Source: Methylocapsa palsarum
Lineage (GTDB): Bacteria > Pseudomonadota > Alphaproteobacteria > Rhizobiales > Beijerinckiaceae
Direction of reading: 5' to 3'
Length of the DNA: 64,000 nucleotides
NCBI RefSeq assembly: GCF_900114285.1
Contig: NZ_FOSN01000001.1
Location: 186,001-250,000, forward strand
Shown here one piece after another: positions 2,834 to 34,967 of this stretch. The stretch's first letter is position 1. Each line of letters begins with the position of its first letter. The notes under the pieces are model-generated. The model searched no databases, had not been told where the DNA came from, and saw nothing but the letters and a program-made list of their open reading frames with translations. The translations under genes were made by a program, and so were the position numbers.

Positions 2834-4170
2834 ACATCAGCTATTTAACAAAGAGCCGCCGTGATTTTCTGTCGAGCCTGATCGTTGGCTGCGGCGTCGC
2901 CGCCAGCGGGCTCGGGGTCGCCCCTGCATGGGCGCAGGACCGCTACCTCGACGTGCGCCGCGGCGCCGATTTCAAACCGATCCCGATCGCGGTGACGCCA
3001 TTCGCCGGCGATGCGGCGGCGGCCGGTCAGGTATCCGGCATCATCACCAACAATTTCAAACGTTCGGTGTTCATTACACCGATCGACCCCAAGACCTTCG
3101 TCGCGACGATCGACAATCCCGACGTCGCGCCGCAAATGGACGGCTGGCGCGCGGTCAACGCCCAGTTCGTGCTTACGGGCCGCGCGGCCCGCAATCCCGA
3201 CGGACGGCTGCAGACCGAATTCCGGCTCTGGGACGTTACGACCGGCGCGCAGGTCGCCGGGCAGCAATATGTCACCGATCCGAACAATTCGCGCCGCGTG
3301 GCGCATATCATTTCAGACGCGATTTTCACCCGCATCACCGGGGAGGGCGGCTTTTTCGACACGAGAATCGTCTTTGTCGATGAAACAGGGCCTAAGGAGC
3401 GCCGCCGCAAGCGCCTCGCGATCATGGACCAGGACGGCGCCAACGTTCGCTATCTGACCCGCGGCGACGACCTTGTCGTGACGCCGCGGTTTTCGCCATC
3501 GTCCCAGGACGTGACCTATATGTCCTTCGGAGCCTCGGATCCGAAGGTTCTTCTGCTCAACATCGAGACAGGCCAGCGCGAGGTTGTCGGCAATTTTCCG
3601 GGCATGACCTTCGCGCCCCGGTTTTCGCCGGATGGCCAGAAAATCGTCATGTCCCTTGCGCAGGGCTCGGCCTCGAACCTGTTCACGATGGACGTGCGCT
3701 CGCGGACGACGACGAGGCTCTCCGACTCGACGGCGATCGACACTTCGCCTTCCTATTCCCCGGACGGAACCCAGATCGCCTTCGAATCGGACCGGGGCGG
3801 CGCGCAGCAGATCTATGTCATGTCGTCGAGCGGCGGTTCGCCGCGGCGGATCTCGTTCGGCGAAGGGCGCTATTCGACCCCGGTCTGGTCGCCGAAAGGC
3901 GATTACATCGCGTTCACCAAGCAAAAGGGCGGAACCTTCGCCATCGGCGTGATGCGTCCCGACGGGAGCGGCGAGCGCATCCTGACCGAAGGCTATCATA
4001 ACGAAGGGCCGACCTGGGCGCCGAACGGGCTCTACCTGATGTTCTTCCGGGACCCCGGCGGCGAGGGCGGACCGAAAATCTTCATGGTCGACGTCTTTGG
4101 CCGCGCCGAATTTCCGGTCCCGACGCCCGCCTTCGGGTCCGACCCGGCTTGGAGCCCGCTCCTGAACTGA
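2830..4170 (+). CDS. tolB: TolB, periplasmic beta-propeller of Tol-Pal, with Tat-type signal
   Basis: TolB is a periplasmic propeller that shuttles between Pal and TolA. The 446-residue product has an N-terminal TolB domain and WD40-like PD40 repeats ([30 protein letters not shown]) filling its second half. I choose the TTG at 2830, which overlaps the tolA stop as TTGA and leaves a clean signal peptide ending AWA-QD near residue 35; a GTG at 2788 would add 14 residues read inside tolA. The signal contains SRRDFL at residues 9-14, a good twin-arginine motif, which implies Tat export instead of the Sec export used by well-studied TolB proteins. A Sec signal with fortuitous arginines cannot be excluded. 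Confidence 0.94.
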
Positions 4171-4569
4171 CAGGGCGCGGCGCGTTTTCGCTCCGGCTCC
4201 CTCTAATCCTCAGGAAATTCTCAGAAATCCCCAAGAAAAACAGACCGGCTGGAAATCGGCCGATCCTGCACGATTTCGGTCGAATCTGACGCATTTCCAC
4301 TGACGAAACCGGACAACAGTTCGGAGCAAGGCGAATTTTGTATGAATAATCCACCGAATCGGTCCGGCCCTGATCGTGACGCTCAAGCCAATTGCGGCGG
4401 CTTGGCGGGGCCTGGCCCTATTCCGGCCATTAACCAGAGGTTAACCATTTCTTTTGATTGCTCAAATGCAACGCTTCGGGGGAAGCTTGGATCAAGGTTG
4501 ACGGAACCTTCCATTAACCGCGGGGAGATAGGACAGATTACGCCCTGGGGTTCAGTCAAGGAGCAAAGG
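4171..4569. other. tolB-pal intergenic region without a gene
   Basis: This 399-bp gap has no convincing reading frame on either strand. It is locally AT-richer than its flanks and carries a perfect CtrA-type box (4430-4445), an extra TTAAC half site near 4514, and the pal ribosome binding site. I read it as a promoter region that lets pal be transcribed apart from tolQRAB. Confidence 0.6.
4430..4445 (+). promoter_or_regulatory. CtrA-type binding box upstream of pal
   Basis: TTAACCAGAGGTTAAC is a perfect match to TTAA-N7-TTAAC, the site bound by the alphaproteobacterial cell-cycle regulator CtrA. It lies 125 bp before the pal start codon. A further TTAAC half site follows near 4514. Binding is inferred from sequence only. 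Confidence 0.6.
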
Positions 4570-5091
4570 ATGAGCATTCTTAAACGGACAGGCGGAATGA
4601 AATTCGCCGCCGTGCTCGGCGCCGCCCTCGCGATCGGCGCCTGCGCCAAAACTCCGTCGGAAGATCCGGCCGCTCTCGCGAATGCGGGGGCCAATATGGG
4701 CGCCAGTGCGGGAGCCGCGACGCCCGGCAGTCCTCGCGATTTCGCGGTCAATGTCGGCGACCGCGTCTTTTTCGACAGCGACATGAGCGAATTGAGCTCC
4801 ACAGCGCAGGCGACGCTCGACAAGCAGGCGACCTGGCTTCAGCAATATAATCGTTACGTTATCACCCTCGAAGGCCACGCCGACGAGCGTGGAACCCGCG
4901 AATACAATTTCGCGCTCGGGGCCCGGCGCGCGGAGGCCGCCAAAGCCTATCTCGTCGCGCGCGGCATCCCGGCGGCCCGCATCCACACGATCAGCTACGG
5001 CAAGGAACATCCGGTGGCCGTCTGCAACGACATTTCCTGCTGGTCGCAGAACCGCCGCGCGGTCACGGTCCTTGGCGGCGCGCAATCCTGA
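4570..5091 (+). CDS. pal: Pal, peptidoglycan-associated outer-membrane lipoprotein
   Basis: Pal is an outer-membrane lipoprotein that grips diaminopimelate in peptidoglycan through an OmpA-like domain. The 173-residue product starts at an ATG with AAGGAG at 4558-4563, has a short signal with lipobox AIGAC, an Ala/Gly linker to about residue 55, and an OmpA-C domain with VFFDSDMSEL, GHADERGTREYN and the closing SQNRRAVTV. Two cysteines near the C-terminus (VCNDISCW) match alphaproteobacterial Pal. In-frame sequence upstream of 4570 is rejected because the lipobox then falls far from the N-terminus. Confidence 0.96.
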   Translation: MSILKRTGGMKFAAVLGAALAIGACAKTPSEDPAALANAGANMGASAGAATPGSPRDFAVNVGDRVFFDSDMSELSSTAQATLDKQATWLQQYNRYVITLEGHADERGTREYNFALGARRAEAAKAYLVARGIPAARIHTISYGKEHPVAVCNDISCWSQNRRAVTVLGGAQS

Positions 5092-5445
5092 TTGGGAGGC
5101 GCAAGTCTTGCGCCCTTCGGCTGAGCCGCTGCGAGCATCTGGCCCCGCTTAAGCAAACGGTTCGAGGCTGCCGGTACGACCGGTCTGATCCCGATCAGCG
5201 ATGAACTGGCGAAGCTTGGTCAGAGAAAGCGGCGAGTGGGTTCGAGCTGATCCTGGCACTGCCCTCTTTAGGCGCGGCGTCGATGACATCCGCAACGGTT
5301 GAAGGCGCTCGGCGTCGCTGCGCAGTACGCGGCTTCGCCCCGAGCCCCTTTCGAGGGCCTTCCTCCCCCCGTCCCCCATGCGATCGCCGGCCCGCCGAGA
5401 GCGTGTCGCGCCCTTGTTGCGCGCACCGGCTCGTGACTCGCTCGC
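5092..5445. other. pal-ftsH convergent intergenic region, no gene
   Basis: I see no supportable gene here. Just after the pal stop an almost loopless inverted repeat (GGCGCAAG-T-CTTGCGCC, 5098-5114) may end the tol-pal transcript, though no T-run follows. The remainder has no recognisable motif and, if the cpoB-tilS-ftsH block was inverted, contains or borders one rearrangement junction. Confidence 0.4.
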
Positions 5446-5482
5446 AAAAAAAGAGCGCGACTCCCAATCCGGAAGTCGCGCG
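5446..5482 (-). terminator. Rho-independent terminator after ftsH
   Basis: On the minus strand GCGCGACT (5481-5474) pairs with AGTCGCGC (5462-5455) around an 11-nt loop, and seven T residues (5452-5446) follow shortly after. It lies 80 bp past the ftsH stop, in the right orientation to end the cpoB-tilS-ftsH transcripts. Confidence 0.75.
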
Positions 5483-5561
5483 CCCTTTCGATTTGGATCG
5501 ATCAGCGGGGCGAGGACCTATCTGAAGCCATCGCCGCGCGCTGCGTCTTTGAGGGGCCGGC

Positions 5562-7490
5562 CTAGACCTGGGGCTGCGGCTCGAGGCCGCCCGCCTCCGG
5601 GCCTGCCTTGGGGCGAGGCGCGGCGCCTGTCGTCGGCACGGGCGAGCCCCGCGTCGTAGACGAATCGTCGCCGGTGTCGCGAACCGGACGGCGTCCTTGC
5701 AGGAGGCCGAGGATCTCGTCGCCCGAAAGCGTCTCGTATTCGAGGAGGCCCTTCGCGAGGGTCTCGAGATCGCCGCGCTTTTCGGTGATGATGCGCCTTG
5801 CCTCGGCGAGGCCCATTTCGACGAGTCTGCGAACCTCGGAATCGATCTTCCGCGCCGTTTCCTCCGAAATGGTCTGCTGCTTGCCCATCGAATAGCCGAG
5901 GAAGACCTCCTGCTGGTTTTCGCCATACATGACCGTTCCGAGTTCCTCGGAGAAGCCCCAGCGGGTCACCATCGCGCGGGCGAGATTGGTCGCCTGCTCG
6001 ATATCCGACTGGGCGCCGGAGGTGATCTGGTCCTTGCCGAAAATCTGCTCTTCGGCCACGCGGCCGCCCATGCAGACGGCGAGGCGCGAGGTCATCTGTT
6101 CGTAGCTCGTCGACAGTTTGTCGCGTTCGGGAAGCTGCATGACCATGCCGAGGGCGCGGCCGCGCGGGATGATCGTCGCCTTGTGAACCGGGTCGGTCGC
6201 CGGAACATTCAGCGCGACGATCGCATGACCGCCTTCGTGATAGGCGGTCAGCGCCTTTTCCTGCTCGGTCATCACCATGGTGCGGCGTTCCGCGCCCATC
6301 ATGATTTTGTCCTTCGAATCCTCGAACTCGGCCATGGTGACGACGCGCTTACCGCGGCGCGCCGCCAGAAGCGCGGCCTCGTTGACGAGGTTCATGAGGT
6401 CGGCGCCCGAGAAGCCCGGCGTTCCGCGAGCGACGGTGCGAAGCTCGACGTCAGGGGCGAGCGGCACCTTGCGGACATGGACCTTCAGGATGCGCTCGCG
6501 GCCGACGACGTCGGGATTCGGCACCGTGATCTGACGATCGAAACGGCCTGGACGCAGCAGGGCGGGGTCGAGAACGTCGGGACGGTTGGTCGCGGCGATG
6601 AGGATGATGCTTTCGTTGGCCTCGAACCCGTCCATCTCGACGAGCAACTGGTTCAATGTCTGCTCGCGCTCGTCGTTGCCGCCGCCGAGTCCGGCGCCGC
6701 GATGACGGCCGACAGCGTCGATTTCATCGATGAAGATGATGCAGGGCGAGTTTTTCTTGGCCTGCTCGAACATATCCCGGACGCGGCTCGCGCCGACGCC
6801 GACGAACATTTCGACGAAATCTGAACCCGAGATCGTGAAGAAAGGCACATTGGCTTCGCCGGCGATGGCGCGCGCCAGCAAGGTCTTGCCGGTGCCAGGA
6901 GGTCCGATCAGAAGAACGCCGCGCGGGATCCGGCCGCCGAGCCGCTGAAACCTCTGCGGATCGCGCAGAAATTCGACGATTTCCTGCAGGTCTTCCTTCG
7001 CTTCGTCGACGCCGGCGACGTCCTCGAACGTCACTCGTCCATGCGCCTCGGTCAGGAGTTTTGCTTTCGACTTGCCAAATCCCATGGCGCGGCCGCCCGC
7101 GCCCTGCATCTGACGGGAGAGGAAAATCCAGACGCCGATGATCGCGATGAGCGGAAGCCCGTTGACGAGCAGGGTCAAGAGCCAGCTGTTTCCATCGGAC
7201 GGAGGCCGCGCGGAAATCGACACGTTCTTCTTATAAAGGCTCTGGACAAGCGTCGGATCGTTCGGCGCGTAGGTCGTAAAGGCCCTGTTGTCGGTGAAAT
7301 GACCCGTAATCTCGTTTCCGGAGATCGTGACCTCGCGGACGTGGCCCTGGTCGACTTCGTTCAAGAGCTGGCTGAACGCGATGTCCTGGGCCGGAGCGCG
7401 CTGTCCAGGATTCTGAAACAGCATAACGAGCGCGACGACGAGTAGAATGATGATTACCCAAAGGGCAAAATTTCGGAAATTAGGGTTCAT
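5562..7490 (-). CDS. ftsH: FtsH, membrane-anchored ATP-dependent zinc metalloprotease
   Basis: FtsH degrades misfolded membrane proteins and short-lived cytosolic regulators. The 642-residue product has membrane helices at about 6-25 and 100-122, the AAA+ module with Walker A GPPGTGKT, Walker [13 protein letters not shown] and the second region of homology [20 protein letters not shown], and the zinc site HEGGH (HEAGH in many other phyla). The ATG at 7490 gives the usual [11 protein letters not shown] start; the frame runs 63 nt further upstream without a better start. tilS lies 136 bp upstream on the same strand. Confidence 0.97.
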
Positions 7491-15661: not shown

Positions 15662-16728
15662 GTGACTACCCTTTTTAAGACCATCGAAGATCCGGGTACG
15701 CTTGCGCAAGCGATCGTGGACACGATTCGCGAGCCGTTGCTTGTGCTTGGAGACGACCTGTGCGTGCTCGCCGTCAGCCGCTCCTATTGTCTCATGTTCG
15801 AGGTCGCGAGTTCTAACGTTCTGGGTCAGTCGCTTTACGCCCTGGGCGACGGTCAGTGGCGCATTCCTGATCTTGGCGCGCTTTTGGAAAAAGTCCTCCG
15901 GGAACATATCCCCGCAGAGTGTTTTGAGGTCGAGCACGAGTTTCCGAGGATTGGCCGTCGCACGATGCTGCTGAATGCGCGCGAGGTGTTCTACGACCAT
16001 TCCGCGCGCACCACTCTTTTGCTGGCGTTCGAGGATGTCACCGCACTGCGGGCCGCCGATCGTGAGAAAGATGAGTTTTTGCGACGCACGGAAGAATTGA
16101 TCCAGCAAAAAGACGTGTTGCTCCGCGAAATGGAGCACCGCGTCGGAAACAGCCTTCAGATCATCGCCAGCATCCTAATGTTGAAAGCGCGTACCGTACC
16201 TCAGACGAGACCCGTCTGCATCTTCAGGACGTGCATCGACGCGTAATGGCGGTGGCGGCGGTACAGCAGCATCTGCACATTTCCGAGCGTCATGATCAGA
16301 TCGACATCAAGCCTTATCTTTCGGGGCTTTGCGAAAGCTTGGCGGCGTCTATGATCGGCGCAAGCCGGTCGGTCTCGCTGCAGGTTCGGATCAACGGCGG
16401 AAAAGCCGAGTACTCAAAGGCGGTCAGCCTTGGTCTTGTCGTCACAGAGCTTGTGATTAATGCATTGAAGCACGCTTTTCCGAAGGAAAAGCCGGACTGT
16501 CAAGTTGTCGTCAGTTATCAGACCCATAATGAGAATTGGACTCTCGTCGTTTCTGACAACGGGGCCGGAAAGCAGGAAGTCGTTGCAGATCTTGCGAAGG
16601 GCGGCCTCGGCACGTCCCTGGTCAAAGCGCTCGCGCAGCAGCTTGACGCAAAGGTCGAGGTCTTGAGCGGCCCAGGCGGCGTGAAGGCATCACTCACGCA
16701 TGTCTCGCAAGCGTCCCTGCCCGCATAG
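15662..16728 (+). pseudogene. PAS-HWE-type histidine kinase, split by a one-base frameshift
   Basis: The first frame (GTG 15662, stop 16246) encodes a PAS domain and the dimerisation motif EMEHRVGNSLQIIAS of HWE/HisKA_2 kinases, then loses homology after LKARTV. The frame that continues the family pattern (SDETRLHLQDVHRRVM) begins at 16201 and runs to 16728, with the ATPase motifs LVVTELVINALKHAF and GGLGTSLVKAL. One base appears missing at about 16196-16201. The repaired protein would be about 355 residues, normal for the family. Both halves are otherwise intact, so the lesion is recent or an assembly error. The second part has a GTG at 16231 and might be made separately. Confidence 0.85.
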
Positions 16729-19400: not shown

Positions 19401-19474
19401 TGGGGGATAGTTCAACGGTAGAACAGCGGACTCTGACTCCGTCAATCTTGGTTCGAATCCAGGTCCCCCAGCCA
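19401..19474 (+). tRNA. tRNA-Gln, anticodon CUG, CCA encoded
   Basis: The 74-nt gene folds as a standard cloverleaf: acceptor TGGGGGA/TCCCCCA, D arm with AGTTCAACGGTAGAAC, anticodon stem GCGGA/TCCGT around CTCTGAC giving anticodon CTG, and T arm GGTTCGAATCC. The UGGGG start is typical of tRNA-Gln. CCA is encoded at 19472-19474. No integrase or attachment-site duplication is visible downstream. Confidence 0.95.
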
Positions 19475-20485: not shown

Positions 20486-22840
20486 CTAGATCCGGTGAAG
20501 GGCGGCGACGAGGCAGTCGATATCGTCGTAGGTATTGTACAGCGCCAGAGACGGCCTCACCGTGGTCTCGAGCCCGAAACGGCGCAGGATCGGCTGCGCG
20601 CAATGATGTCCCGCCCGCACGGCGACGCCTTCCCGGTCGAGCGCGGCGCCGACGTCCTCGCTGCGGCAGCCGTCGAGGACAAACGAAACGAGGCCCGCCT
20701 TTTCTTTCGCCGTGCCGATGATGCTGAGACCCGGCACGCCAAGGAGGCCGTGGGTGAGGTAGCCGAGCAGTTCATGCTCGTAGGCGGCGATATTGCCCAT
20801 GCCGATGCGGTCGAGATAGTCGATCGCGGCGCCGAGGCCGACCGCGTCGGCGATATTGCCAGTGCCGGCCTCGAACCGGCCTGGCGGCGGCTGATAGATG
20901 GTCTTTTCGAACGTGACGTCGGCGATCATGTTGCCGCCGCCTTGCCAGGGCGGCATCGCGGCGAGAACCTCGGGCTTGCCGTAAAGCGCCCCGATGCCTG
21001 TGGGGCCGAAAACCTTGTGGCCCGAAAAAACATAGAAGTCGCAGTCCAGCGCCTGAACGTCGACAGGCATGTGCGACACCGCCTGGGCGCCGTCGACAAG
21101 CACGCAGGCGCCATGCCGATGCGCGATCGCGACCATCTCCTGAGCCGGCGTGATCGTTCCCAGCGCGTTGGAGACCTGGGGAAGGGAGACGAGACGCGTC
21201 CTTGGTCCGAGCAGCGCGGTGTATTCGTCGAGCAGGATTTGGCCGCTGTCATCCACCGGCGCGACGCGCAGCACGGCGCCGGTTTCGGCGCACAACATCT
21301 GCCAGGGCACGATATTGGCGTGATGTTCGAGCCAGGTGACGACGATCTCGTCGCCTTCGCGGATGTTGCGCCTGCCCCAGGTCTTGGCGACGAGATTGAT
21401 CGCTTCGGTGGCGCCGCGCGTGAAGACGATCTCGTTGGACGATCCGGCGCCGAGAAACCGCCGGACCTTCTCGCGCGAGGCCTCGTAGGCGTCGGTCGAG
21501 CGGGCGGCGAGCGCGTGAGCGGCGCGATGGATGTTCGAGTTCTCGGTTTTGTAGAACAGCGCGAGCCGATCGATCACCGCCTGCGGTTTTTGCGTGGTCG
21601 CGGCGTTGTCGAGCCAGACGAGGGGCTTGCCGTGAACCTTTTCGCGCAGGATCGGGAAATCGCGCTTGATCGCATGGGCGTCGAAGGCGCGCGCGCCGGA
21701 AATGAGTTCGGAGGAAAGCAGCGCGCGCGTTTGCGGAGCCGCCGCGCCGTCAGCGTGGGCGGGCGCCGAGGCGGTCTGCGCGTCGTTGAGGAAATAGAGC
21801 GTTTCGCCAGGAACCTGAGAAGGGACGAGGGGAAGCGCGTCGTGCGAAAATCCGGCCGGTCCTGATCGCGAACCAAACGAGGCCGTCTCGCCGAGATCCT
21901 GCGGCCTAAGATCGCTTTCGGTTGGGAAATTGTCGCCAAAGGCGGGGCTCTGCTCGAACGAGGGCGCAAGAGCAGGAACTGGCGTAAGAGGAGCTGGCGC
22001 AAGAGCAGGAGCAAGTGTGTGAGGCGCGCCAGATTGCGGCGCCTCGTAGGGAAACGAAGGCGCGAAGCCGGCGCCGGATGGCGGCGCGGGAACCGGGCTG
22101 AACTGCCCGGGAACCGCAATCGGCGGAAGCGGCGCGGGAGCCGTAGCGCCCTGGCCGAGAAAATAAAGCGCGTCGCCGCCCTGGCCGGACGCAAGATTCA
22201 AAGGGATCGACGGTGAAAGCCCTCCCGGAAACCCCGAGGGCCGCGTTGTGGGAACGAAGGATGTGACAGCGCCGAGAGAGTGTGGGATCGCCGCGAGACT
22301 GGCTTCGTTCGGGAAGTCCGACGCGGGCGAACCTTTCGACGCAAAGCCTCCCGACCCAAAACCTTGCGGAGAGCCTTGCGGAGAGGCCTGGCCTTTTTCA
22401 ATGGACGGCCCGGAAAAACCCGCGAGCGGAAGCGGCGATTCGACAGCGCCCGCCGGAAGACCAGTCGCGCCGGTGGCGAGGCCCGCGGCCGGAACATGCT
22501 GTGCGGGCGCCTGCGCGGATAGCGTCGGATGACCCGGAAGTTCGGTGACAAAGGGGAGCGATTGCGCACCCGGCGCGCTGGTTGCGGGCGCGGCGGCGGC
22601 GGCGCCGATCGCGCCCGGCAGCGACGTCGGCGGCGCCGGGGCGCGCTCCGCCGTCACGATATGATTTGCGAGCGCCTGCGGATCGACGGCCTGCCCAGGC
22701 GAACCGTTGAAAAACGCGTTGGCCAGATGCGCGATCAATCCCGGATCAACGACGCCCGGACCCTGGCCGCCCCATTGCGGGGCGGGGGGAGTCGCCACCG
22801 GCGCGGTCGCGGCGGCGTGGCGGGGATCAGGTATATTCAT
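20486..22840 (-). CDS. Encapsulin-associated cysteine desulfurase with long N-terminal cargo-loading region
   Basis: The C-terminal 400 residues are a complete SufS-type (class II) cysteine desulfurase: AFDAHAIKRDFPIL start, WLDNAATTQKP, PLP lysine in FSGHKVFGPTG (about residue 608) and catalytic cysteine in RAGHHCAQPI (about 746). It takes sulfur from cysteine, giving alanine and a persulfide. The first 375 residues are a disordered Ala/Pro/Gly region with hydrophobic islands: LIAHLANAFFNG near 34-45 and two LYFL motifs near 224 and 347. Cargo enzymes of family 2A encapsulins have such a region, but usually nearer 200-230 residues. The ATG at 22840 lies 14 nt inside the shell gene, so the two are translationally coupled. 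Confidence 0.93.
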   Translation of the reverse strand: MNIPDPRHAAATAPVATPPAPQWGGQGPGVVDPGLIAHLANAFFNGSPGQAVDPQALANHIVTAERAPAPPTSLPGAIGAAAAAPATSAPGAQSLPFVTELPGHPTLSAQAPAQHVPAAGLATGATGLPAGAVESPLPLAGFSGPSIEKGQASPQGSPQGFGSGGFASKGSPASDFPNEASLAAIPHSLGAVTSFVPTTRPSGFPGGLSPSIPLNLASGQGGDALYFLGQGATAPAPLPPIAVPGQFSPVPAPPSGAGFAPSFPYEAPQSGAPHTLAPALAPAPLTPVPALAPSFEQSPAFGDNFPTESDLRPQDLGETASFGSRSGPAGFSHDALPLVPSQVPGETLYFLNDAQTASAPAHADGAAAPQTRALLSSELISGARAFDAHAIKRDFPILREKVHGKPLVWLDNAATTQKPQAVIDRLALFYKTENSNIHRAAHALAARSTDAYEASREKVRRFLGAGSSNEIVFTRGATEAINLVAKTWGRRNIREGDEIVVTWLEHHANIVPWQMLCAETGAVLRVAPVDDSGQILLDEYTALLGPRTRLVSLPQVSNALGTITPAQEMVAIAHRHGACVLVDGAQAVSHMPVDVQALDCDFYVFSGHKVFGPTGIGALYGKPEVLAAMPPWQGGGNMIADVTFEKTIYQPPPGRFEAGTGNIADAVGLGAAIDYLDRIGMGNIAAYEHELLGYLTHGLLGVPGLSIIGTAKEKAGLVSFVLDGCRSEDVGAALDREGVAVRAGHHCAQPILRRFGLETTVRPSLALYNTYDDIDCLVAALHRI

Positions 22841-23768
22841 GATAGTGACCGACCTCCACGTTCTCCAGCACGCCGAGCGCATCCGGGGTCAGGATAGCCG
22901 AAGAGCAGTAGAGCGAGATCAGGTAGGAGGCGATCGCCTTGCGGTTGATGCCCATGAACCGGACCGAGAGGCTGGGGGTCACTTCGCCCGGAACGCCCGG
23001 CTGGAACAGGCCGACGACGCCCTGCTTCTTTTCGCCCGTGCGCAGCAGGAGAATGGTCGACGTGCCGCCGCCGTCTGCCGATTCCGCGATCTTGAGTTTG
23101 TCGCTGGGAACGAGCGGAATGCCCCGCCAGGTCAGGAAGGGCGTGCCGAACAGGTTGATGGTTGGCGGCGGGACGCCGCGGCGCGTGCACTCGCGTCCGA
23201 AGGCCGCGATCGCGCGGGGATGGGAAAGAAAGAAGGCCGGCTCTTTCCAGACGCGCGCGATCAACTCGTCCATATCGTCCGGCGTCGGCGGTCCGCGGCG
23301 GGTGGAGATTTTCATGAACGGAGCGGCGTTGGTCAGGATGCCGTAGTCGCCGTTGTAGATGAGTTCGCTTTCCTGACGCTCCTTGACCTTCTCGATCAAC
23401 AGCCGAAGCTGTTCCTGAATTTGATCATAAGGTTGATTGTAGAGGTCGGACACGCGGGTCTGGACGTCGAGCACCGTCGTCACGGCGTTCAGAAAATACT
23501 CCCGCGGCGCAGTCTCATAATCGACGAAGGTTTCCGGCAGGTCGCTGTCGCGGTCCCGGCTGGGACTGCATTCGACGTCGCTGACGCCCTCCGTGTCCTT
23601 GACCCGGTTCAGGCGGTAGATGCCGGCCTCGACGGGAACCCAGGGCAGGAACGACACGAGCCAGCGCGGCGTGATGCCGGACCATTGAGCGCGCGTCTTG
23701 GTGGCGTTGGCGAGTTGGCGGGCGGCCGGCTCACTCAGCGTGCGGCGAACCTCGACGTCATCAGGCAT
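22827..23768 (-). CDS. Family 2A encapsulin shell protein (SrpI-like)
   Basis: The 313-residue product has the HK97-fold shell pattern of family 2A: an N-terminal arm with LSEPAARQLANATKT, then GITPRWLVSFLPWVPVEAGIY, a helical P-domain with VSDLYNQPYDQIQEQLRLL, and a C-terminal A-domain region with KLKIAE and SLSVRFMGINRKAIASYL. It lacks the inserted cyclic-nucleotide-like domain of family 2B. Sixty copies would form a compartment of about 25 nm. The start has AAGGAG 9 nt upstream. It is the first gene of a two-gene operon, with its desulfurase cargo second. Homologues such as Synechococcus SrpI are induced by sulfur limitation and package cysteine desulfurase. Confidence 0.9.
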   Translation of the reverse strand: MPDDVEVRRTLSEPAARQLANATKTRAQWSGITPRWLVSFLPWVPVEAGIYRLNRVKDTEGVSDVECSPSRDRDSDLPETFVDYETAPREYFLNAVTTVLDVQTRVSDLYNQPYDQIQEQLRLLIEKVKERQESELIYNGDYGILTNAAPFMKISTRRGPPTPDDMDELIARVWKEPAFFLSHPRAIAAFGRECTRRGVPPPTINLFGTPFLTWRGIPLVPSDKLKIAESADGGGTSTILLLRTGEKKQGVVGLFQPGVPGEVTPSLSVRFMGINRKAIASYLISLYCSSAILTPDALGVLENVEVGHYHEYT

Positions 23769-24007
23769 TGAGAAGACACTCCTTTTCGCGGGCGGATCGG
23801 ATCAACGCGAACAGGACGCTCTGTAGCATCGGTCGTAGAGAAAATTATTCTTTATTGGTCTATTGAATGATTTTTCAATGCGAGCCAAAATATATACTTT
23901 GTAAAATCAACCAATTTAGTCAGGAAGACGTGCGGTCGCCTGTGACACCTTATCTCTCAACAGGGAGGCCTCGGACAATTCCAGGCGATCATTGGGCCAA
24001 GCGAGCC
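23769..24007 (-). promoter_or_regulatory. AT-rich control region of the encapsulin operon with palindrome
   Basis: Between the shell start and the hairpin after the outer-membrane gene lies a sharply AT-rich stretch (about 23840-23925). It contains ATTGAA-TGATTT-TTCAAT (23862-23879), a perfect 6-6-6 inverted repeat. Its TTGAAA (minus strand) could be a -35, with TAAAGA 18 bp on as a weak -10, which would place a repressor or LysR-type site over the promoter. No open frame is credible here. Confidence 0.5.
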
Positions 24008-24856: not shown

Positions 24857-27301
24857 TCAGAGTTTGGCTCTCAGCGTAAATCCGACCATGAGCGGGTCGC
24901 CGACGAGGCCGCCGATGGCGCCGCCAGGGAGCGCCGTCGCCGACACGTTGAGCCAATAACGCTTGTTGAGCGCATTGTGGGCCCAGGCCTGCAAGTCCCA
25001 GCTTCCGTCTTCGAACCGGACGCCCGCATGAATGTTCAGCAAACCGTACCCGGGAATCCTGCTGTAGATCGAATCGTCGGCGAGCGAGTAGATTTGAGTC
25101 TGATAGGTCCAGTCAACGCCGCCATAACCGACGAGCGGTTTTTGGAACGCCTCGATCACCTGCCCGAGATTCTTGGCGTATTCGAAGCCTGTCGCCATCG
25201 CGAATTTTGGCGTGATCGGCAATGGCTTTCCGGTCAGGTTGCAAGAGCCGACGGTGTTGCTCAATTCGAACGGGCAGGCGGCGTTCTTGTAGTCCGAATA
25301 GAACGCATCATCATACGTAAACGACGCGTAAGTGTTTAATTCCTCGATGGGCCTGTAGCGGACGTCGAATTCGACGCCGCGCGAAACGGCGCCGCCAGCG
25401 TTAGCAAGATAAGTCACTGTGTTGCCGCCAACGATAGCCGACGCGTTGGTGATATAGCCATGATTATACATCACGAAGCCGGCGAGGTTGGTCAGCAGCT
25501 TCTGATCGAGAAAGCTTCCCTTGAGGCCGGCTTCGTAATTTTGAACGATCTCCGGATTTACGGTCACCGGCACGCCGGCGGGGAGATTGGCGACCGGGTT
25601 GGGACCGCCGCCTCGCCCGCCCTGGGAGACGGTCACATAGCCAAGAATGTCGGGCGTGAATTTATAGGAAGCGGACCCGAGGAACGACAGGATACCCTGA
25701 TGGGTGTTCGCCGTGTATTGCTTGTCCGCGCCGAAGAAAGCGATAGACGTGGCCTTGGCGAGCGCAGCCTGCGCCGGCGTCAGCCCGGAATAATCCTGCT
25801 GAGTAAAAATATACTGCCGGAAGATGCTCTCTTTAGCATAATAGGAATAACGCACGCCTCCCGTGATGTCCAACTCCGGCGTTGCGTGCCAGACGCCCTG
25901 AGCGTAGGGAGCGATCTGGTTGGTTAGAGGATTATCGTAAGTCTGACGCCCGAGGTAATTATAGGCGGCGTTGGCGACCTTGATGGGAAGAGCTGGGGAT
26001 TTGTAGTAAAGCGCCGCATCGCTCCCGTTGGTCGTCAGGCCGAAATCGTAGAGCTGTTCATACAGATAAAACAGACCTGCGAAGCCCTCGACGGGCAATC
26101 CCTTGGGCGAGGAAATCTTGATGTCCTCAACCACCGAACGCGACGGCGAGACGTGGCCGTTGGTATTTGTCACCAATTGAGGCGCGATCAGCGCGTTCTC
26201 ACGGTTGTTCGGATGGAACTCCCAATCCTGAAACGACGAAATGGAACTCAGTGTGAACCCGTTGAAGCGATAATCGATGCTTGCAGAGGCGCCGTAGTTT
26301 TCCTGAGCCGTTTGGAGGTAGCCGTTGATCGAAGCGATATAATTCTGCGGCGCGCCGCTGGTGGGGACGTTGTAATTGAGCCGCCCGATGCGCGTGTAGA
26401 AATTATTCGGCACCGCCGCCCCGTTCGCGTAATTCGTCACGGCTCCAGCGAAAAGATTGACGCAGCACGCCTGATTCACATGAGCATAGCTGAGCGTGAA
26501 CCGGGCGGTGAGATCCTCGGTCGGCGTATAGAGAAATTGCAGCCGTGCGCCCTTGTCATGCCAGTCGCTGAAGTTTTGTCCCGGCCCGTTATAGTTCGAG
26601 ATATAGCCCTGACGGTCGGTGTCGAACACCGACAGACGGAACGCGGCTTTGTCGCTGTCGGCGATCGCCCCTGTGGCCGACGCCTTGAGCTGCACGAAAT
26701 TGTAGTTGCCATAGGAGATTTCTCCGGTCTCCTGGGCGACAAAACTTGGCAGAGCGGTTGATATGTTGACGATGCCGCCGGTGCTGTCCTGGCCGCCCGA
26801 GGTTCCTTGCGGGCCCTTGAGAACCTGAACGCCGATGAGATCAGGGATATCGAACACCGCCTGGCCGGGGCGTGGCTGGTAGACCCCGTCGATATAGATC
26901 GGCACGCCGCCATAGATGCCGTCGGTGGCGTTCGAAGACGAAGCGCCGAAGCCGCGGATGTTGAATGTCAGGTTGCGGACGTTGCCGTAGCGGAACTGGA
27001 GACTGGGCTCCAGCTTTTGCGCTTGAGCGAGGTTGGTGATGTTGAGGGATTGAATCTGCTCTTGTGTAATGACGGTCGCGGAGACCGCCTTTTCCTGATA
27101 CGCCGTCGCCTGTTTTTGCGAGACGGCCTGCACGCTGGTCGGATTTGCATCCTCCGGCCCAGCGCTAACCACCACGTCTTCGACATGGCCTTCCGCGGGC
27201 GGCGCCGCGTCCTGAGCGAAGGCTGCGGTGGTCATCGTGAGGCCAAGGCAGAGCGGCAGGCCGACTCGTCGCCCGATACGGTGTTGCTTTCTCTTTTTCA
27301 T
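24857..27301 (-). CDS. TonB-dependent outer-membrane receptor
   Basis: This class imports scarce ligands across the outer membrane with energy from TonB. The 814-residue product has a signal peptide (KKRKQ start, cleavage at about AFA-QD), a TonB box VEDVVVSA, a plug domain with LEPSLQFRYGNVRNLTFNIRG and VQVLKGPQGT, and a 22-strand barrel ending LMVGFTLRAKL with a terminal basic Leu instead of Phe. The ATG at 27301 gives the signal peptide at the N-terminus; the frame stays open 216 nt upstream without a better start. tonB-exbB-exbD lies 2 kb away. The closest match by eye is the siderophore/sugar receptor type with an STGGIVNI plug motif, but the substrate cannot be read from sequence. Confidence 0.93.
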   Translation of the reverse strand: MKKRKQHRIGRRVGLPLCLGLTMTTAAFAQDAAPPAEGHVEDVVVSAGPEDANPTSVQAVSQKQATAYQEKAVSATVITQEQIQSLNITNLAQAQKLEPSLQFRYGNVRNLTFNIRGFGASSSNATDGIYGGVPIYIDGVYQPRPGQAVFDIPDLIGVQVLKGPQGTSGGQDSTGGIVNISTALPSFVAQETGEISYGNYNFVQLKASATGAIADSDKAAFRLSVFDTDRQGYISNYNGPGQNFSDWHDKGARLQFLYTPTEDLTARFTLSYAHVNQACCVNLFAGAVTNYANGAAVPNNFYTRIGRLNYNVPTSGAPQNYIASINGYLQTAQENYGASASIDYRFNGFTLSSISSFQDWEFHPNNRENALIAPQLVTNTNGHVSPSRSVVEDIKISSPKGLPVEGFAGLFYLYEQLYDFGLTTNGSDAALYYKSPALPIKVANAAYNYLGRQTYDNPLTNQIAPYAQGVWHATPELDITGGVRYSYYAKESIFRQYIFTQQDYSGLTPAQAALAKATSIAFFGADKQYTANTHQGILSFLGSASYKFTPDILGYVTVSQGGRGGGPNPVANLPAGVPVTVNPEIVQNYEAGLKGSFLDQKLLTNLAGFVMYNHGYITNASAIVGGNTVTYLANAGGAVSRGVEFDVRYRPIEELNTYASFTYDDAFYSDYKNAACPFELSNTVGSCNLTGKPLPITPKFAMATGFEYAKNLGQVIEAFQKPLVGYGGVDWTYQTQIYSLADDSIYSRIPGYGLLNIHAGVRFEDGSWDLQAWAHNALNKRYWLNVSATALPGGAIGGLVGDPLMVGFTLRAKL

Positions 27302-27671
27302 GGTCGTGATCCGTTTGAGGGCGGCCGGCGAAACGGCGCCGCCGGCGCAATGGGTTGGGGTGCGCTTGTTGGACGCACACCCGACCAAAAAGCTAGGATT
27401 TAAATATCCAGTAGATTTGTAGAGAATATCAAATGGAAACTTGGCCGTACAACCAAACTCGCGGCTGCTATTGCAGAAATACAACAGTGGGAAGAGTCGG
27501 TTGGTCGACAGAAGCATGTCTGTCGCAGGCGAATCACAATCGGGTTTATGGTTGGCGCGCGCCGCGTCCGCGCGCTCACGGCGGGCGCCACGCTCGCGGT
27601 TGACGCCGCGGGATTCTGCCGATGAAACTCTGAACTGGCAGACTCTGGTCCTTGCGAACCACGATCGCGCG
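27302..27671. other. Receptor-regulator intergenic region
   Basis: There is no supportable gene here. It should hold the receptor promoter on the minus strand. An AT-rich part (27395-27440) contains GGATTTAAATATCC, a near palindrome, and at 27409-27423 CAGTAGATTTGTAGA, which matches 12 of 15 bases of the element at 46929-46943 but in the opposite orientation relative to the gene. Confidence 0.4.
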
Positions 27672-28298
27672 TCAGGCGTCGGCCACGTTCACATAGGATA
27701 TGACGAGGTAGAGAAGCGCCGCCACGGAGCCGAGATTGCGGTAGGTATGCGGAACATCGGCCTCGAAGACGATGGCGTCTCCCTCGCCGAGCGTTTGGGC
27801 CGGCTCTTTCCCGGACGTGACCTCGACGCATCCGCGCACGACAACGAGGCTTTCAAGCGTGCCGGGCGTATGCGCCTCGCAATATTCTTCGTGGCCTGGC
27901 GCGACGTTGAGCTCATAGAATTCCACGAGTCTCTTGCTGTCGTGCGGGAACAGGGCCCGGCTGGTGAAATGCCCGTCGCTCGACGAGATGACGCTTTTGC
28001 TTTCGTTTCTCAAGACAAAGGTGCCGCGCCTTCGGCGGTCCGAGATCAGGCTGCCGACGGGCACGCCAAGCGCGTTGGCGATCTTCCAGAGAACGCTGAG
28101 GGACGGCGTGATCTCGCCGTCCGCGAGCTTTCCGATGCTCGCCTCGCCAAGCCCCGAAGCCGCGGCGAGCCGTTCGAGCGAACGGCCCTGATGCGCCAGC
28201 AAAAGGCGCAGCCGATTGCCGACGCCCAATCTAAAATCATTGGAAGAGCGTGCATAATCAAGCTCTTCTGTGGCCGGGCGAGTATCGTGGTCTGGCAT
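27672..28298 (-). CDS. XRE-family regulator with C-terminal cupin domain
   Basis: The 208-residue product has an XRE helix-turn-helix at about residues 25-85 (LAAASGLGEASIGKLADGEITPSLSVLWKIANAL) and a cupin sensor domain from about 115 (HTPGTLESLVVVRGCVEV, GEGDAIVFEADVPHTYRN). Proteins of this build often control amino-acid, polyamine or sulfur-compound genes and sense small ligands through the cupin. Its stop lies 370 bp from the TonB receptor gene on the same strand, so it may regulate it, but nothing in the sequence proves this. The 184 bp before it contain an AT-rich stretch around 28310-28345. Confidence 0.88.
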   Translation of the reverse strand: MPDHDTRPATEELDYARSSNDFRLGVGNRLRLLLAHQGRSLERLAAASGLGEASIGKLADGEITPSLSVLWKIANALGVPVGSLISDRRRRGTFVLRNESKSVISSSDGHFTSRALFPHDSKRLVEFYELNVAPGHEEYCEAHTPGTLESLVVVRGCVEVTSGKEPAQTLGEGDAIVFEADVPHTYRNLGSVAALLYLVISYVNVADA

Positions 28299-28482
28299 AG
28301 GCGCGGTTTCACTATTAAGTCCATAAATAATATGATCTATTCAGGATCAAGGAATTTCATGGCTGCGTCAAGCGTATGGACGCCTCGCTGCGGATTTCTT
28401 TTGCCCTTGTGCTGCGCGTAGGCGGAGCGGCTCGCTATTCCCGGTTCTCGATTGGAGTGATTCAATCTGATCGGAATATGCT

Positions 28483-28917
28483 CTAGCGAAGCGCGAGTTG
28501 GTCTCGAACTCCGCGCGTGCTCAACGCGGCGATGCTGGTGCGATCGAGGATGAGCGCCATCGAATCGCGCACGTCGAGCATCAGGTCGCGCACGGCGCAG
28601 GCGTCTTCATCCGGACAATCCGCGCATTTGCGATAGGCCGTGCGGCTGGCGCAGGCGATCGGCGCGAGGGGGCCGTCGAGGATGCGAATGATCTGGCCGG
28701 CGGTGATCTTCTCCGCGGGCCTCGCCAGATGATAGCCGCCGCCCTTGCCCTTCTTGCTCGTCAGGATCCCGGCGTTCTTGAGTTCGAGCAAAATAGCGTC
28801 AAGGAACTTGCGCGGGATCTGGTTTTGCGAAGCAATGTCGGCGGCGAGGCACGGGCCCTCGAACGTCGCGAGATGAATGAGCGCCTTGAGCCCGTATTTT
28901 CCCTTGTTTGACAGCAT
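28483..28917 (-). CDS. Rrf2-family transcriptional regulator with Cys cluster
   Basis: Rrf2 regulators sense iron-sulfur clusters, nitric oxide or cysteine status through a helix-turn-helix and nearby cysteines. The 144-residue product has MLSNKGKYGLKALIHLA, the DNA-binding helix in QIPRKFLDAILLELKNAGIL and GKGGGYHLARP, and a cluster C-x8-C-x2-C-x5-C (within IACASRTAYRKCADCPDEDAC) where IscR-like proteins bind Fe-S. The ATG at 28917 matches family starts; 66 upstream codons in frame are rejected. It is divergent from tonB, whose promoter carries the TAGTAG-N4-ATAGA element, so it is the best local candidate for the factor that binds that element. Confidence 0.88.
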   Translation of the reverse strand: MLSNKGKYGLKALIHLATFEGPCLAADIASQNQIPRKFLDAILLELKNAGILTSKKGKGGGYHLARPAEKITAGQIIRILDGPLAPIACASRTAYRKCADCPDEDACAVRDLMLDVRDSMALILDRTSIAALSTRGVRDQLALR

Positions 28918-29122
28918 CCGGCACCATTGAAGGGGAAGGCGCCGAGGACTGCTCCCGCGCGCGCCAGCGATCGCGCCGCCAATCGATAATCGCGTTCGCG
29001 CGTCGCCGCAATGTCGGAAGAGTGTTTCTTCTCGCCGATGCAAGCCGTCGTTCCGCCCCGCGAAGCTTCGCCCCCGCCAGATCAGCCAGAACATTTCATT
29101 TGCGTCGCACCGCAAAAAGCAG

Positions 29123-32865: not shown

Positions 32866-32977
32866 CGCCTGATTGATTGCGCCCGAGGGAAGAAGAACTG
32901 GCCGCCGGTCGCCGAATCCCTGCCCTTAAGTCCCGTAAAGTCGTCCGAGCCATGCCGGGATCGTTCGACGGAACGGT

Positions 32978-33397
32978 TCACTTGGTCAGAGGCTTGTAGA
33001 TATCGTGGCAGCTGCGGCAGGTTTGCGCGGTTTGGCGGGCCGCGGCGGCGGCGCCTTCGAAATTGCTGTCAGCCACCAATTTGACGGCCGCGGCCAGAGC
33101 TTCCTGACCCTGGCGTGAAATAGTGACGGCGTCATCGGCGCCGCCCTTCTTGGCGAAGTAATCTTCGGTATATTTGAATCCGTCCTGAAGCACGGCGGCG
33201 TCGTCGAGCGCGCTTTGCGCATTGCCCGCGGTGATGTCAGGCTCGAAATATTTGATCGTTTTGTCGAGGTCGCGCATCAGATCGTCATCATAATCATGCA
33301 GGTCGATCGTCTTTCGCTCGGCATACAGCGGCGTGTTCAGCATCGTGGCGGCGACAAAGGCGATCAAGATAGATTTTCGCATTCCAAAATGTTCCAT
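32978..33397 (-). CDS. Second cytochrome c'-like periplasmic protein
   Basis: The 139-residue product has a signal peptide (cleaved about LYA-ER) and a C-terminal heme motif CRSCH preceded by AAAAARQTAQT, the usual place in class II cytochromes. The rest is helical and acidic (LHDYDDDLMRDLDKTIKYF). The ATG at 33397 has GAGG close upstream; an internal ATG at 33382 is also possible and would shorten the signal. It lies on the minus strand 120 bp after DUF1501, so it may be the last gene of that operon. It is only distantly similar to the protein encoded at 31391. Confidence 0.85.
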   Translation of the reverse strand: MEHFGMRKSILIAFVAATMLNTPLYAERKTIDLHDYDDDLMRDLDKTIKYFEPDITAGNAQSALDDAAVLQDGFKYTEDYFAKKGGADDAVTISRQGQEALAAAVKLVADSNFEGAAAAARQTAQTCRSCHDIYKPLTK

Positions 33398-33518
33398 ATT
33401 CCTCGAAGATTCGCGCCGCGGCGGCGCCTATGCGGCTCCGCCGCGCTCTCAAAACGGCAACGCCCGGAAGCGAGCTTCCAAGCGTTCCAATCTCTACGTC
33501 CACGAAGGCGCTGTTTTT

Positions 33519-34967
33519 TTACGCTAGCAGTTCCTTGATCACTTCGCCGTAGACCACGGTCGGGCGTTCAGACCTGCCCGCCCGAAGGTAGATGGTTTTC
33601 AGGTGATCGAGGCCGAGCAGCTGCAGCACCGTGGCGTGAAGGTCGTAGGTGTCAACCTTCCGGCCAACCGACTGAAGTCCGATTTCGTCGGTTTCGCCAA
33701 AGGTCGTGCCGGCCTTGACTCCGCCTCCGGCGAGCCATTGCGTGTATCCCCATGGGTTGTGGTCGCGCCCATTGCCGCTTTGGCCATATGAGGTGCGTCC
33801 GAATTCCGACGTCCACACAACAAGCGTCGTGTCCAGAAGGCCGCGCTCCTTGAGATCCGTGAGCAAGCCGGCGATCGGCTGATCGACAATCCTGGCGTGA
33901 GCGCCATGGTTGCTTTCAAGATGCTCGTGCGCGTCCCAGTTCACGGCGATCTCGTTGCCCGGAAGCTCCACGGCGCCGGAAACGACCTGAATGAAGCGGA
34001 CGTTGCGCTCGACGAGGCGACGGGCGCGCAGCAAGGTCGTGCCATATTCCTTGGTCGCCTCATTATCGAGGCCATAAAGAGCCTTCGTCGCGTCGGATTC
34101 CTTGGAAAGATCCACAGCCTCCGGCGCCGTCGCCTCCATCTTGTAGGCAAGTTCATAGGACCGCAGGCGAGCCTGAAGTTCGGAATCTTCGGGATGAACA
34201 GACGCGCTATGTTCGTTGAGGCTCTTCAGCAGATCGAGATCGTCCCGTTGCTCCTTCAGAGCGATCAGCTCCGGGCGATCGAGGTGAAGAATGGGCGAGG
34301 GGCCAGGCCGGAAGGCGGTGCCTTGATAAACTGCGGGAAGGAAACCCGAGCTCCAGTTGACTGACCCACCCGAGGGCTCTTTCTTTCCGCTGTACAAAAC
34401 GACATAGGCGGGCAAGTCGGGGTTCGCGGAGCCGAGCGCGTAGTGAACCCAGGCGCCGAGCGAGGGCCGTCCGGGGCTCGTGTCGCCGGTGTTGAGCTTC
34501 AGGATCGAAATGTCATGGGTGGCGCCGATGGTTGTGCTCGACTTGATGAAGTTGATCTTGTCGGCGTGCTGCGCAAGGTTCGGCAAAAGATCCGAGAACC
34601 ACGCGCCGCTCTGGCCGTATCGCTTCCAGGTCCGATTGGAGGCGAAGAGTTTGCCGACGCCGCCCTGCGTGCTTGTCTTGATCCCATTGAGAAAGGAGGG
34701 GGGCGCTTCCTGCCCGGCGAGCTTGATGAGGTCGGGCTTGTAATCGTAGAGGTCGAGCGTGCTCGGCGCCCCATCCATGTGCAGCCAGATGACGGATTTG
34801 ACCTTGGGCGGGAAGTGCGGCTGTTTAGGCGCAAGCGGATCCGCAAGCGATTCGGCGAGCGCCGGCGTCGCGAAGACGCCGCCTCCTGGCATATACGCGG
34901 CGAGGGTCAGTCCGCCCACCCCGTAGATCGATTTAAACAATAATTCGCGGCGTGACGCCTTGCTCAT
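33519..34967 (-). CDS. DUF1501 family protein with Tat signal
   Basis: DUF1501 proteins have an alkaline-phosphatase/sulfatase-like fold; the biochemical role is not established. The 482-residue product starts with SRRELLF, a twin-arginine signal, then VKSVIWLHMDGAPSTLDLYDYKP, SSTTIGATHDIS, HEHLESNHGAHARIVD and VVWTSEFGRT, HNPWGYTQWLAGGGVK, all typical of the family, with clustered Asp/His residues that would bind metal. It follows the DUF1549/DUF1553 gene by 36 bp on the same strand; this pair is a hallmark of Planctomycetes, where it occurs in many copies, and is less common in Proteobacteria. Confidence 0.88.
   Translation of the reverse strand: MSKASRRELLFKSIYGVGGLTLAAYMPGGGVFATPALAESLADPLAPKQPHFPPKVKSVIWLHMDGAPSTLDLYDYKPDLIKLAGQEAPPSFLNGIKTSTQGGVGKLFASNRTWKRYGQSGAWFSDLLPNLAQHADKINFIKSSTTIGATHDISILKLNTGDTSPGRPSLGAWVHYALGSANPDLPAYVVLYSGKKEPSGGSVNWSSGFLPAVYQGTAFRPGPSPILHLDRPELIALKEQRDDLDLLKSLNEHSASVHPEDSELQARLRSYELAYKMEATAPEAVDLSKESDATKALYGLDNEATKEYGTTLLRARRLVERNVRFIQVVSGAVELPGNEIAVNWDAHEHLESNHGAHARIVDQPIAGLLTDLKERGLLDTTLVVWTSEFGRTSYGQSGNGRDHNPWGYTQWLAGGGVKAGTTFGETDEIGLQSVGRKVDTYDLHATVLQLLGLDHLKTIYLRAGRSERPTVVYGEVIKELLA

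What the first reader, a model, noticed from the sequence alone, without database searches (positions are those of the whole stretch)
20486..23768. Two-gene family 2A encapsulin system: shell plus cysteine desulfurase cargo
The shell gene has the family 2A pattern and lacks the cyclic-nucleotide-like insertion; the cargo gene starts 14 nt inside it and encodes an intact class II cysteine desulfurase behind a disordered leader. Known relatives (SrpI of Synechococcus) are sulfur-responsive compartments. In many genomes a serine acetyltransferase or other sulfur genes flank the pair; here the neighbours are an Lrp regulator and an outer-membrane barrel gene, so this is a minimal version in an alphaproteobacterium.
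Basis: partly seen in the sequence, partly recalled or inferred. Interest (0 to 1): 0.85.

Follow-up and report, generated by a model that had tools for sequence, protein, structure and literature searches.

The report
Sulfur-handling encapsulin compartment gene pair
The two genes encode a known kind of virus-like protein shell and the cysteine-splitting enzyme packed inside it; the less expected part is a short DNA signal in front of them that, in the related genomes searched, was found before such shell genes and before a cysteine-synthesis gene.

Summary
The shell (22827-23768, minus) matches the family 2A encapsulin model NF041162 at 505 bits (cut-off 380) and is 67% identical to SrpI over 296 residues. 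The cargo (20486-22840, minus) matches the family 2A cargo model NF041166 at 849 bits (cut-off 800), with PLP lysine and catalytic cysteine in place. The genes overlap by 14 nt. It is a new member of a well-described family. The Lrp and outer-membrane neighbours look incidental. 'Minimal' is fair: four of seven assessable shell-bearing sister species carry a serine O-acetyltransferase (SAT) downstream; here it is absent, though an unlinked SAT paralogue exists.

Two additions. (1) The cargo leader carries a roughly 70-residue module twice, each copy ending in the reported YFL motif. (2) A 30-bp box 55 nt before the shell gene is conserved before all nine shell operons of the genus while flanking DNA is at random identity. 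At up to one mismatch it occurs in the 15 genus genomes only at these shells and before two linked SAT genes; another genus has exact copies before a shell and two SAT genes not beside a shell. It is probably a shared promoter or operator; its reader is unknown.

The parts
22827..23768 (-). family 2A encapsulin shell protein, 313 aa (HK97-fold)
   Evidence: NF041162 505 bits, cut-off 380, E 4e-152; PF19307 SrpI-like E 9e-107; PDB 8t6r and 6x8m best hits; 67% identity to SrpI over 296 residues
20486..22840 (-). cargo cysteine desulfurase (class II, SufS-like), 784 aa, start codon inside the shell gene
   Evidence: NF041166 f2_encap_cargo1 849 bits, cut-off 800; PDB 8kg1 best hit
21689..22840 (-). 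cargo leader, residues 1-384, predicted largely disordered
   Evidence: pLDDT below 50 in most of residues 1-30 and 66-383
22703..22747 (-). loading-associated motif 1, DPGLIAHLANAFFNG (residues 32-46), counterpart of the published LARLANEFFS
   Evidence: 31.8 bits with a matrix trained on leaders outside the test set, 1% shuffled threshold 1.4; predicted helix 33-45
22148..22366 (-). leader module, copy A (residues 159-231), ends in GGDALYFLGQG
   Evidence: hhalign of copy A against copy B profiles E 5e-17; in the window 0 of 500 shuffles reach the A/B score, also 0 of 500 without the YFL end
21779..21997 (-). leader module, copy B (residues 282-354), ends in PGETLYFLNDA, counterpart of the published AASPYYFLDG
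   Evidence: YFL motif 23.1 bits, 1% threshold 9.4
20486..21688 (-). cysteine desulfurase domain; PLP lysine K609 (21014-21016) and catalytic cysteine C747 (20600-20602)
   Evidence: both invariant in 37 aligned cargo proteins; equal-length match to E. coli SufS chain 1i29, residues 386-784 to 3-401
23824..23853 (-). 30-bp conserved upstream box, AAAGAATAATTTTCTCTACGACCGATGCTA, 55 nt before the shell start codon; candidate promoter or operator

Best explanation
The pair makes a family 2A encapsulin. Sixty shell subunits are expected to form a T=1 particle of about 25 nm. The cargo desulfurase is drawn in by its long disordered leader, through one LANxFF helix and two YFL-ending modules that would dock near the shell's threefold sites. 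Cysteine enters through the fivefold pore and the enzyme removes its sulfur, most likely so that sulfur is held inside the shell as a store or sink. In this genus the operon is switched by a 30-bp promoter box that is also placed before a serine acetyltransferase gene in several relatives, which ties the compartment to cysteine supply. Shown here: both gene identities, conservation of pore, threefold and catalytic residues, the doubled leader module, and the box and its placement. Inferred: assembly, packaging, sulfur storage, and what the box does.
For: Curated models for shell and cargo; PDB sequence neighbours 8t6r, 6x8m, 8wol for the shell and 8kg1 for the cargo. SrpI pore residues R192, G194, P196 and threefold residues F262, Y273 (named in PMC8049743) map to R196, G198, P200, F271, Y282; G198, P200, F271 and Y282 are invariant in the 47 of 94 shells that were aligned. 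Published leader motifs found. Module duplication. Two further full-length class II desulfurases (51-52% identical) exist in the genome, one among ORFs that by eye resemble SufB and SufC, so this is an extra copy. SAT in 49 of 94 loci. Box: 9 of 9 shell-bearing and 0 of 6 shell-less genus genomes, and before SAT genes in two genera.
Against: Nothing tested here shows assembly, loading or sulfur deposition in this organism. S. elongatus knockouts showed no growth defect (PMC8049743), so the physiological gain is unproven. The SAT partner is missing beside this operon, and the SAT paralogue in the genome has no box. The box has no known reader, and its shell hits are partly circular because the pattern was drawn from them. 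The YFL segment alone was not sufficient for loading in S. elongatus. The shell model is weak and its best Foldseek matches have TM-scores near 0.5 and rmsd above 20 A, so the fold rests mainly on sequence identity to SrpI.
Confidence: 0.87

Rival explanations
1. The shell confines a desulfurase so that sulfur is handed to a chosen acceptor (rhodanese or SufE-like protein) rather than stored.
For: Rhodaneses are named among enriched accessory genes of family 2A operons (PMC8346489 passage); an ORF cluster whose one scanned representative matches MBL-fold and rhodanese models recurs in 15 of 94 loci, 9 of them Acidobacteriota.
Against: No rhodanese model matched the seven neighbours scanned here; genes further out were not scanned. 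An introduction passage in PMC12407261 gives sulfur storage as the role of desulfurase encapsulins.
Confidence: 0.25
2. The shell gene is a stray or degenerate phage capsid.
For: HK97 fold is shared with tailed-phage capsids; weak phage capsid matches appear in the fold search (E 0.027 and worse).
Against: Family 2A equivalog model passed by 125 bits; no phage capsid among the PDB sequence hits; the seven neighbours scanned are cydA, cydB, Lrp, barrel protein, TonB receptor, HTH-cupin and Rrf2; a cargo ORF is found in 88 of the 94 shell loci.
Confidence: 0.01
3. The conserved box is not regulatory but a leftover of the ancestral DNA carried along with the genes.
For: Most box-bearing genomes belong to one genus, so shell copies share descent; no sigma-70-type consensus is recognised there.
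Against: Flanking DNA has fallen to 28-40% identity, about random, while the two halves of the box stand at 87% and 65% over 45 pairs; the box recurs before a different gene, SAT, including SAT genes not beside a shell in another genus, one of them in a genome without a family 2A shell.
Confidence: 0.08
4. The box acts as RNA (transcribed leader) rather than as a DNA promoter or operator.
For: It lies 48-77 nt before the shell start codons, a distance that allows a 5' leader; transcription start unknown.
Against: No Rfam family matches the region except a chance hit at E 1; all 10 training sites fit a pattern with a fixed 8-nt gap between the conserved halves, which suits protein-DNA contact.
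Confidence: 0.15

Closest known systems
SrpI-CyD encapsulin of Synechococcus elongatus PCC 7942 (PDB 6x8m; PMC8049743)
   Same: Shell 67% identical over 296 residues with the named pore and threefold residues kept; adjacent class II desulfurase with disordered leader bearing both reported motifs.
   Different: Leader about 384 instead of 225 residues, YFL module doubled; lies on a 586-kb contig and not on a sulfur-gene plasmid; no SAT within the flanks; own upstream box.
Acinetobacter baumannii family 2A encapsulin (PDB 8t6r)
   Same: Best PDB match of the shell by sequence (E 3e-132) and by Foldseek.
   Different: The functional paper on it (recalled as describing stored elemental sulfur) was not in the library, so cargo details were not compared.
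Cysteine desulfurase 8kg1
   Same: Best PDB match of the cargo domain, residues 385-784, E 3e-184.
   Different: The deposited chain has only 13 residues before the match, so no leader is in it; source organism not shown in the call.
Family 2B encapsulins (PDB 9bje, 9bix, 9bhu)
   Same: Homologous HK97 domain; the 2B model's cut-off is also passed, 430 against 400 bits.
   Different: 2B shells carry a cyclic-nucleotide-binding domain; absent here, and the 2A model scores 75 bits higher.

Membership tests
Family 2A encapsulin shell | Score above the curated cut-off of NF041162 | tested here: met
   505.4 bits against 380, all 295 positions
Family 2A encapsulin shell | No cyclic-nucleotide-binding domain in the E-loop | tested here: met
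   313 aa; only PF19307 matched in Pfam at E up to 0.01
Family 2A encapsulin shell | HK97 fold | tested here: met
   67% identity to SrpI, whose fold is solved. Own model is weak (pLDDT 61.5, pTM 0.53); Foldseek still ranks three 2A shells first, E 5e-28 to 3e-26, but with TM 0.47-0.53 and rmsd 23-28 A
Family 2A encapsulin shell | Assembles into closed T=1 particles | not testable with these tools
   needs expression and microscopy
Family 2B encapsulin shell | Cyclic-nucleotide-binding domain present | tested here: not met
   absent; the 2B model's cut-off is nevertheless passed through the shared HK97 part, best stretch positions 205-450
Family 2A cargo cysteine desulfurase | Score above the curated cut-off of NF041166 | tested here: met
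   849.0 bits against 800
Family 2A cargo cysteine desulfurase | PLP lysine and catalytic cysteine present | tested here: met
   K609 and C747, invariant in 37 proteins; their SufS numbering K226/C364 is recalled, register
Family 2A cargo cysteine desulfurase | Disordered N-terminal domain with the two reported motifs | tested here: met
   motifs as printed in PMC8049743
Family 2A cargo cysteine desulfurase | Packaged in the shell and active there | not testable with these tools
   needs co-purification and assay
Sulfur-starvation-responsive compartment | Expression rises under sulfur limitation | not testable with these tools
   shown for S. elongatus (PMC8049743)
Tailed-phage capsid | Better match to phage capsids than to encapsulins, or phage genes nearby | tested here: not met

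The most novel reading that the evidence does not exclude
In this genus and another genus of the family, the encapsulin operon and a serine O-acetyltransferase gene form a private regulon defined by one 30-bp box, of which no exact copy was found at any other gene in the genomes searched. The compartment and the enzyme that opens cysteine synthesis are therefore switched together even when their genes are not neighbours, by a regulator or sigma factor not yet known. The cargo leader meanwhile evolved a doubled docking module that loads the enzyme by avidity.
Probability: 0.6. Interest if true: 0.55.

Novelty: new member of a known kind. Interest (0 to 1): 0.38.

Why it matters
Family 2A desulfurase encapsulins are abundant (1281 operons, PMC8346489 passage), but what controls them and what they are for in most hosts is open. 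A short DNA box found before the shell operon and one cysteine-synthesis gene gives a concrete bait for finding the regulator and hence the signal. The doubled leader module gives a natural experiment on how cargo is docked. The gene pair itself is an ordinary new member of its family.

Tried and rejected
Lrp regulator as a partner: orthologues (E up to 1e-30) exist in 9 other genus genomes, 8 of which have a shell. In 5 of these 8 both genes are on one contig, 57 kb (G001) or more apart; in 3 (G004, G005, G007) they are on different contigs. Rejected.

TonB receptor and Rrf2 regulator as partners: in G004, G005, G009 and G011 these two sit beside each other but not beside the shell (nearest G004, about 21-23 kb; in G005 on another contig). 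The Rrf2 gene (best specific model CymR, 78 bits against a cut-off of 195) has an 88-91% orthologue in only 4 of the 8 other shell-bearing genomes, so it does not track the box. Rejected as its reader on present evidence.

Lost SAT remnant between cargo and Lrp: the gap is 136 nt, too short for a gene. The own-genome SAT at C29 groups with SATs of G002, G007, G008, G009 and G014, of which G002 and G014 lack a shell, and not with the linked SATs of the genus; support for its place is moderate (94/76), and the wider group also holds linked SATs from other taxa such as L088.

Wider reach of the box: in the loci fetched by then the best site outside this genus and the other box-bearing genus was a half-match upstream of the shell of G017, 12.7 bits. 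An exact order-wide search over 397 genomes hit only this genome; that draw held no other member of either genus. Against: the linked SAT of G004 and the SATs of this genome, G002, G007, G008, G009, G011, G014 and the second of G004 carry no box. Four one-mismatch hits in 149 family genomes show neither shell nor SAT in their 3-kb loci (by eye), and the reversed control gave 5 hits, so one-mismatch hits at that scale are chance-like.

A third leader motif (E.DLR.LP) was tried; its matrix drifted in training and it is not claimed. Two or more YFL copies also occur in 21 of 76 leaders outside the test set, so a repeated motif as such is not unique.

Structure prediction of the shell was weak. 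Rfam and sigma-70 scans of the upstream region gave nothing useful. Library searches for encapsulin with Methylocella, and encapsulin with serine acetyltransferase and promoter, returned no papers; most subscription papers are not in that library. No literature search was made for leader duplication.
Full report
WHAT IS THERE. Two overlapping genes on the minus strand: a 313-aa shell protein at 22827-23768 and a 784-aa cargo at 20486-22840. The shell passes NCBIfam NF041162 (family 2A shell) with 505 bits against a cut-off of 380, and Pfam SrpI-like with E 9e-107. It also passes the family 2B model (430 against 400) through the shared domain, but lacks the 2B-specific part. Of nine PDB sequence matches at E up to 1, eight are family 2 shell chains by entry title or name and one is a chance hit at E 0.94. 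The cargo passes NF041166 (family 2A cargo desulfurase) with 849 bits against 800.

RESIDUES. SrpI pore residues R192, G194 and P196 and threefold residues F262 and Y273, as named in PMC8049743 (Results section read), align to R196, G198, P200, F271 and Y282 here. G198, P200, F271 and Y282 are invariant in an alignment of 47 shells, a selection from 94. The PLP lysine K609 and catalytic cysteine C747 of the cargo are invariant in 37 aligned cargo proteins.

FOLD. The predicted shell model is weak (pLDDT 61.5, pTM 0.53). Foldseek places three solved family 2A shells first (E 5e-28 to 3e-26), then a partial 2A complex and family 2B shells; the first phage capsid is at E 0.027. For the first three the TM-scores are only 0.47-0.53 and the rmsd 23-28 A, so the overall arrangement is not reproduced and the match draws on sequence. 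The cargo model has a mostly confident desulfurase domain and a low-confidence leader with a better-predicted helix at residues 33-45, the LANxFF motif.

GENOME AND DISTRIBUTION. The genome holds one such shell. Among 99 genomes, own included, 17 have a match above the cut-off, including 9 of 15 of the genus; two of the 17 (G019, G022) are longer proteins with split matches, 2B-like by size. The genus is probably Methylocella: one member's length, 4,305,430 bp, is recalled as that of M. silvestris BL2; no call names it. The genome has two further full-length class II desulfurases (52% and 51% identical, C37 and C46) and weaker relatives; the C46 copy lies among ORFs that by eye resemble SufC and SufB. 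A search of named genomes returned 80 loci, a capped list, from Alphaproteobacteria, Acidobacteria and others.

NEIGHBOURHOOD. In 94 related loci (window included, three duplicates removed), a serine O-acetyltransferase-like ORF (E up to 1e-15) lies in the flank of 49: 17 downstream on the same strand, 16 upstream divergent, 12 upstream on the same strand, 4 elsewhere; 27 have none in full flanks and 18 none in cut flanks. Thirty-five of the 49 score 300 bits or more, the other 14 score 85-161; one representative was checked against NCBIfam and passes the EpsC-type SAT cut-off. The loci are not independent. In the window's genus L024, L030, L031 and L032 have it downstream of the cargo, within about 0.6 kb; L028, L029, L034 and the window do not, and L033 is cut by a contig end. 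In the window 136 nt separate the cargo from a convergent Lrp gene. A full-length SAT at C29 of this genome (65% identical to the query) groups with unlinked SATs of genus members, shell-less ones included, and not with the linked SATs of the genus. Lrp, TonB-receptor and cydB orthologues lie away from the shell in the sister genomes where they were found.

LEADER. A matrix trained on 76 leaders finds the LANxFF motif once in the window (31.8 bits, 1% shuffled threshold 1.4) and the YFL motif twice (19.4 and 23.1, threshold 9.4). The held-out test set was eight leaders of the window's genus plus L038, which a later call showed to belong to another genus of the family. Eight of these nine have two YFL motifs above threshold (one of L029's narrowly, 9.9); L034 has one. 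Cutting 73 residues ending at each YFL motif in those eight and comparing the two profiles gives hhalign E 5e-17 and probability 98.8; a control segment of the same leaders gives probability 0.1-0.2. Since both cuts were anchored on the motif, the motif was also removed: 0 of 500 shuffles then reach the window's score, and 0 to 13 of 500 in the other seven. The leader therefore holds a duplicated module. Two or more YFL copies also occur in 21 of 76 other leaders. Whether two copies load better is not known; in S. elongatus the YFL segment alone was not sufficient (PMC8049743).

UPSTREAM BOX. Aligning 300 bp before ten shell genes (nine of the genus, and L038) showed one strongly conserved block. 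Anchored on it, 15-bp windows outside have 28-40% pairwise identity, inside 87% and 65%, over 45 pairs. Its consensus is close to AAAAAAGAAAAATATTCTCC, six variable bases, then CGATGCTACA; the window copy is at 23824-23853, 55 nt before the start codon. A 30-letter pattern drawn from these sites, allowing one mismatch, was searched in the 15 genomes of the genus: 11 matches, 9 exact at the 9 shell operons and 2 with one mismatch upstream of the linked SAT of G005 and G001; none in the 6 shell-less genomes; 0 for the reversed control. The shell hits are circular, because the pattern came from them; the SAT hits are not. A third SAT copy, in G013, scores 23.7 bits by matrix, where the best site not at a box-bearing shell or SAT scores 12.7. 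In 149 family genomes a 29-letter version gave 8 exact matches: 5 shells of the genus, and in another genus one shell (G103, the genome of L038, so also a training site) and two SAT genes (G103 on another contig, and G023, which has no family 2A shell). Four one-mismatch hits lie beside neither gene as far as their 3-kb loci show, and the reversed control gave 5. In the window's own genome a stricter consensus is unique even at 3 mismatches, and an exact search in 397 genomes of the order, with no other member of the two genera in the draw, hits only this genome. The linked SAT of G004, the SAT of this genome and seven other unlinked SATs of the genus have no box.

HOW IT MOST LIKELY WORKS. 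From the family: the shell forms a T=1 cage, the leader pulls the desulfurase in, cysteine passes the pore and its sulfur is removed (PMC8049743). A later paper gives sulfur storage as the role of desulfurase encapsulins (PMC12407261, introduction passage); the primary storage paper (Benisch et al., recalled) was not available. The shared box suggests that cells which keep the partner SAT make cysteine and compartment together, so sulfur entering cysteine could be parked in the shell. In this species the box now serves the shell operon alone. The steps shown here are identities, residue conservation, the doubled module and the box; the rest is inference.

PRINT STATUS. Two main family papers were checked for control regions by word search: PMC8049743 has 'promoter' once, for an expression vector, and CysR once, in a reference; PMC8346489 has no 'promoter' or 'operator'. 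Searches for encapsulin with Methylocella, and for encapsulin with serine acetyltransferase and promoter, found no paper in the library. I did not see the box or the doubled module in the sections and passages read; subscription papers were not visible and no search was made for leader duplication.

VERDICT. A clear, intact new member of the family 2A desulfurase encapsulins; ordinary in itself, with two details worth a test.

Noticed in passing
window 15662-16246 and 16231-16728, plus strand: Two overlapping ORFs read like the halves of one sensor histidine kinase of the HWE/HisKA_2 type split by a frameshift near 16230 (judged by eye, no family search).
   Followed up: no
window 24857-29115, minus strand: TonB-dependent receptor, HTH-cupin regulator and Rrf2 regulator; the receptor and an 88-91% identical Rrf2 lie together in four sister genomes away from the encapsulin, so they form a separate block.
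   Followed up: partly
L031 (G005:C353) cargo gene, locus 4009-6413: The cargo ORF of this relative, from a fragmented assembly, is in two frames, either a frameshift mutation or an assembly error; SAT and shell beside it are open.
   Followed up: no
L044, L045, L047, L057, L058 about 2.2-2.5 kb after the shell stop: In five loci, Methylocystis and Methylosinus among them, an Rrf2-family-like regulator ORF follows the cargo gene, a possible local regulator in those taxa.
   Followed up: no
window about 32975-33400 and 33519-34967, minus strand; also L038, L057, L058: A pair of ORFs (a 482-aa protein starting MSKASRRELLFKSIYGVGG and a small one starting MEHFGMRKSILIAFV) has relatives near the encapsulin in three other loci (clusters 33 and 34); may be chance.
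   Followed up: no
window 19401-19474, plus strand: tRNA-Gln (CTG) between cydAB and the Lrp gene, the only tRNA found in the window.
   Followed up: no
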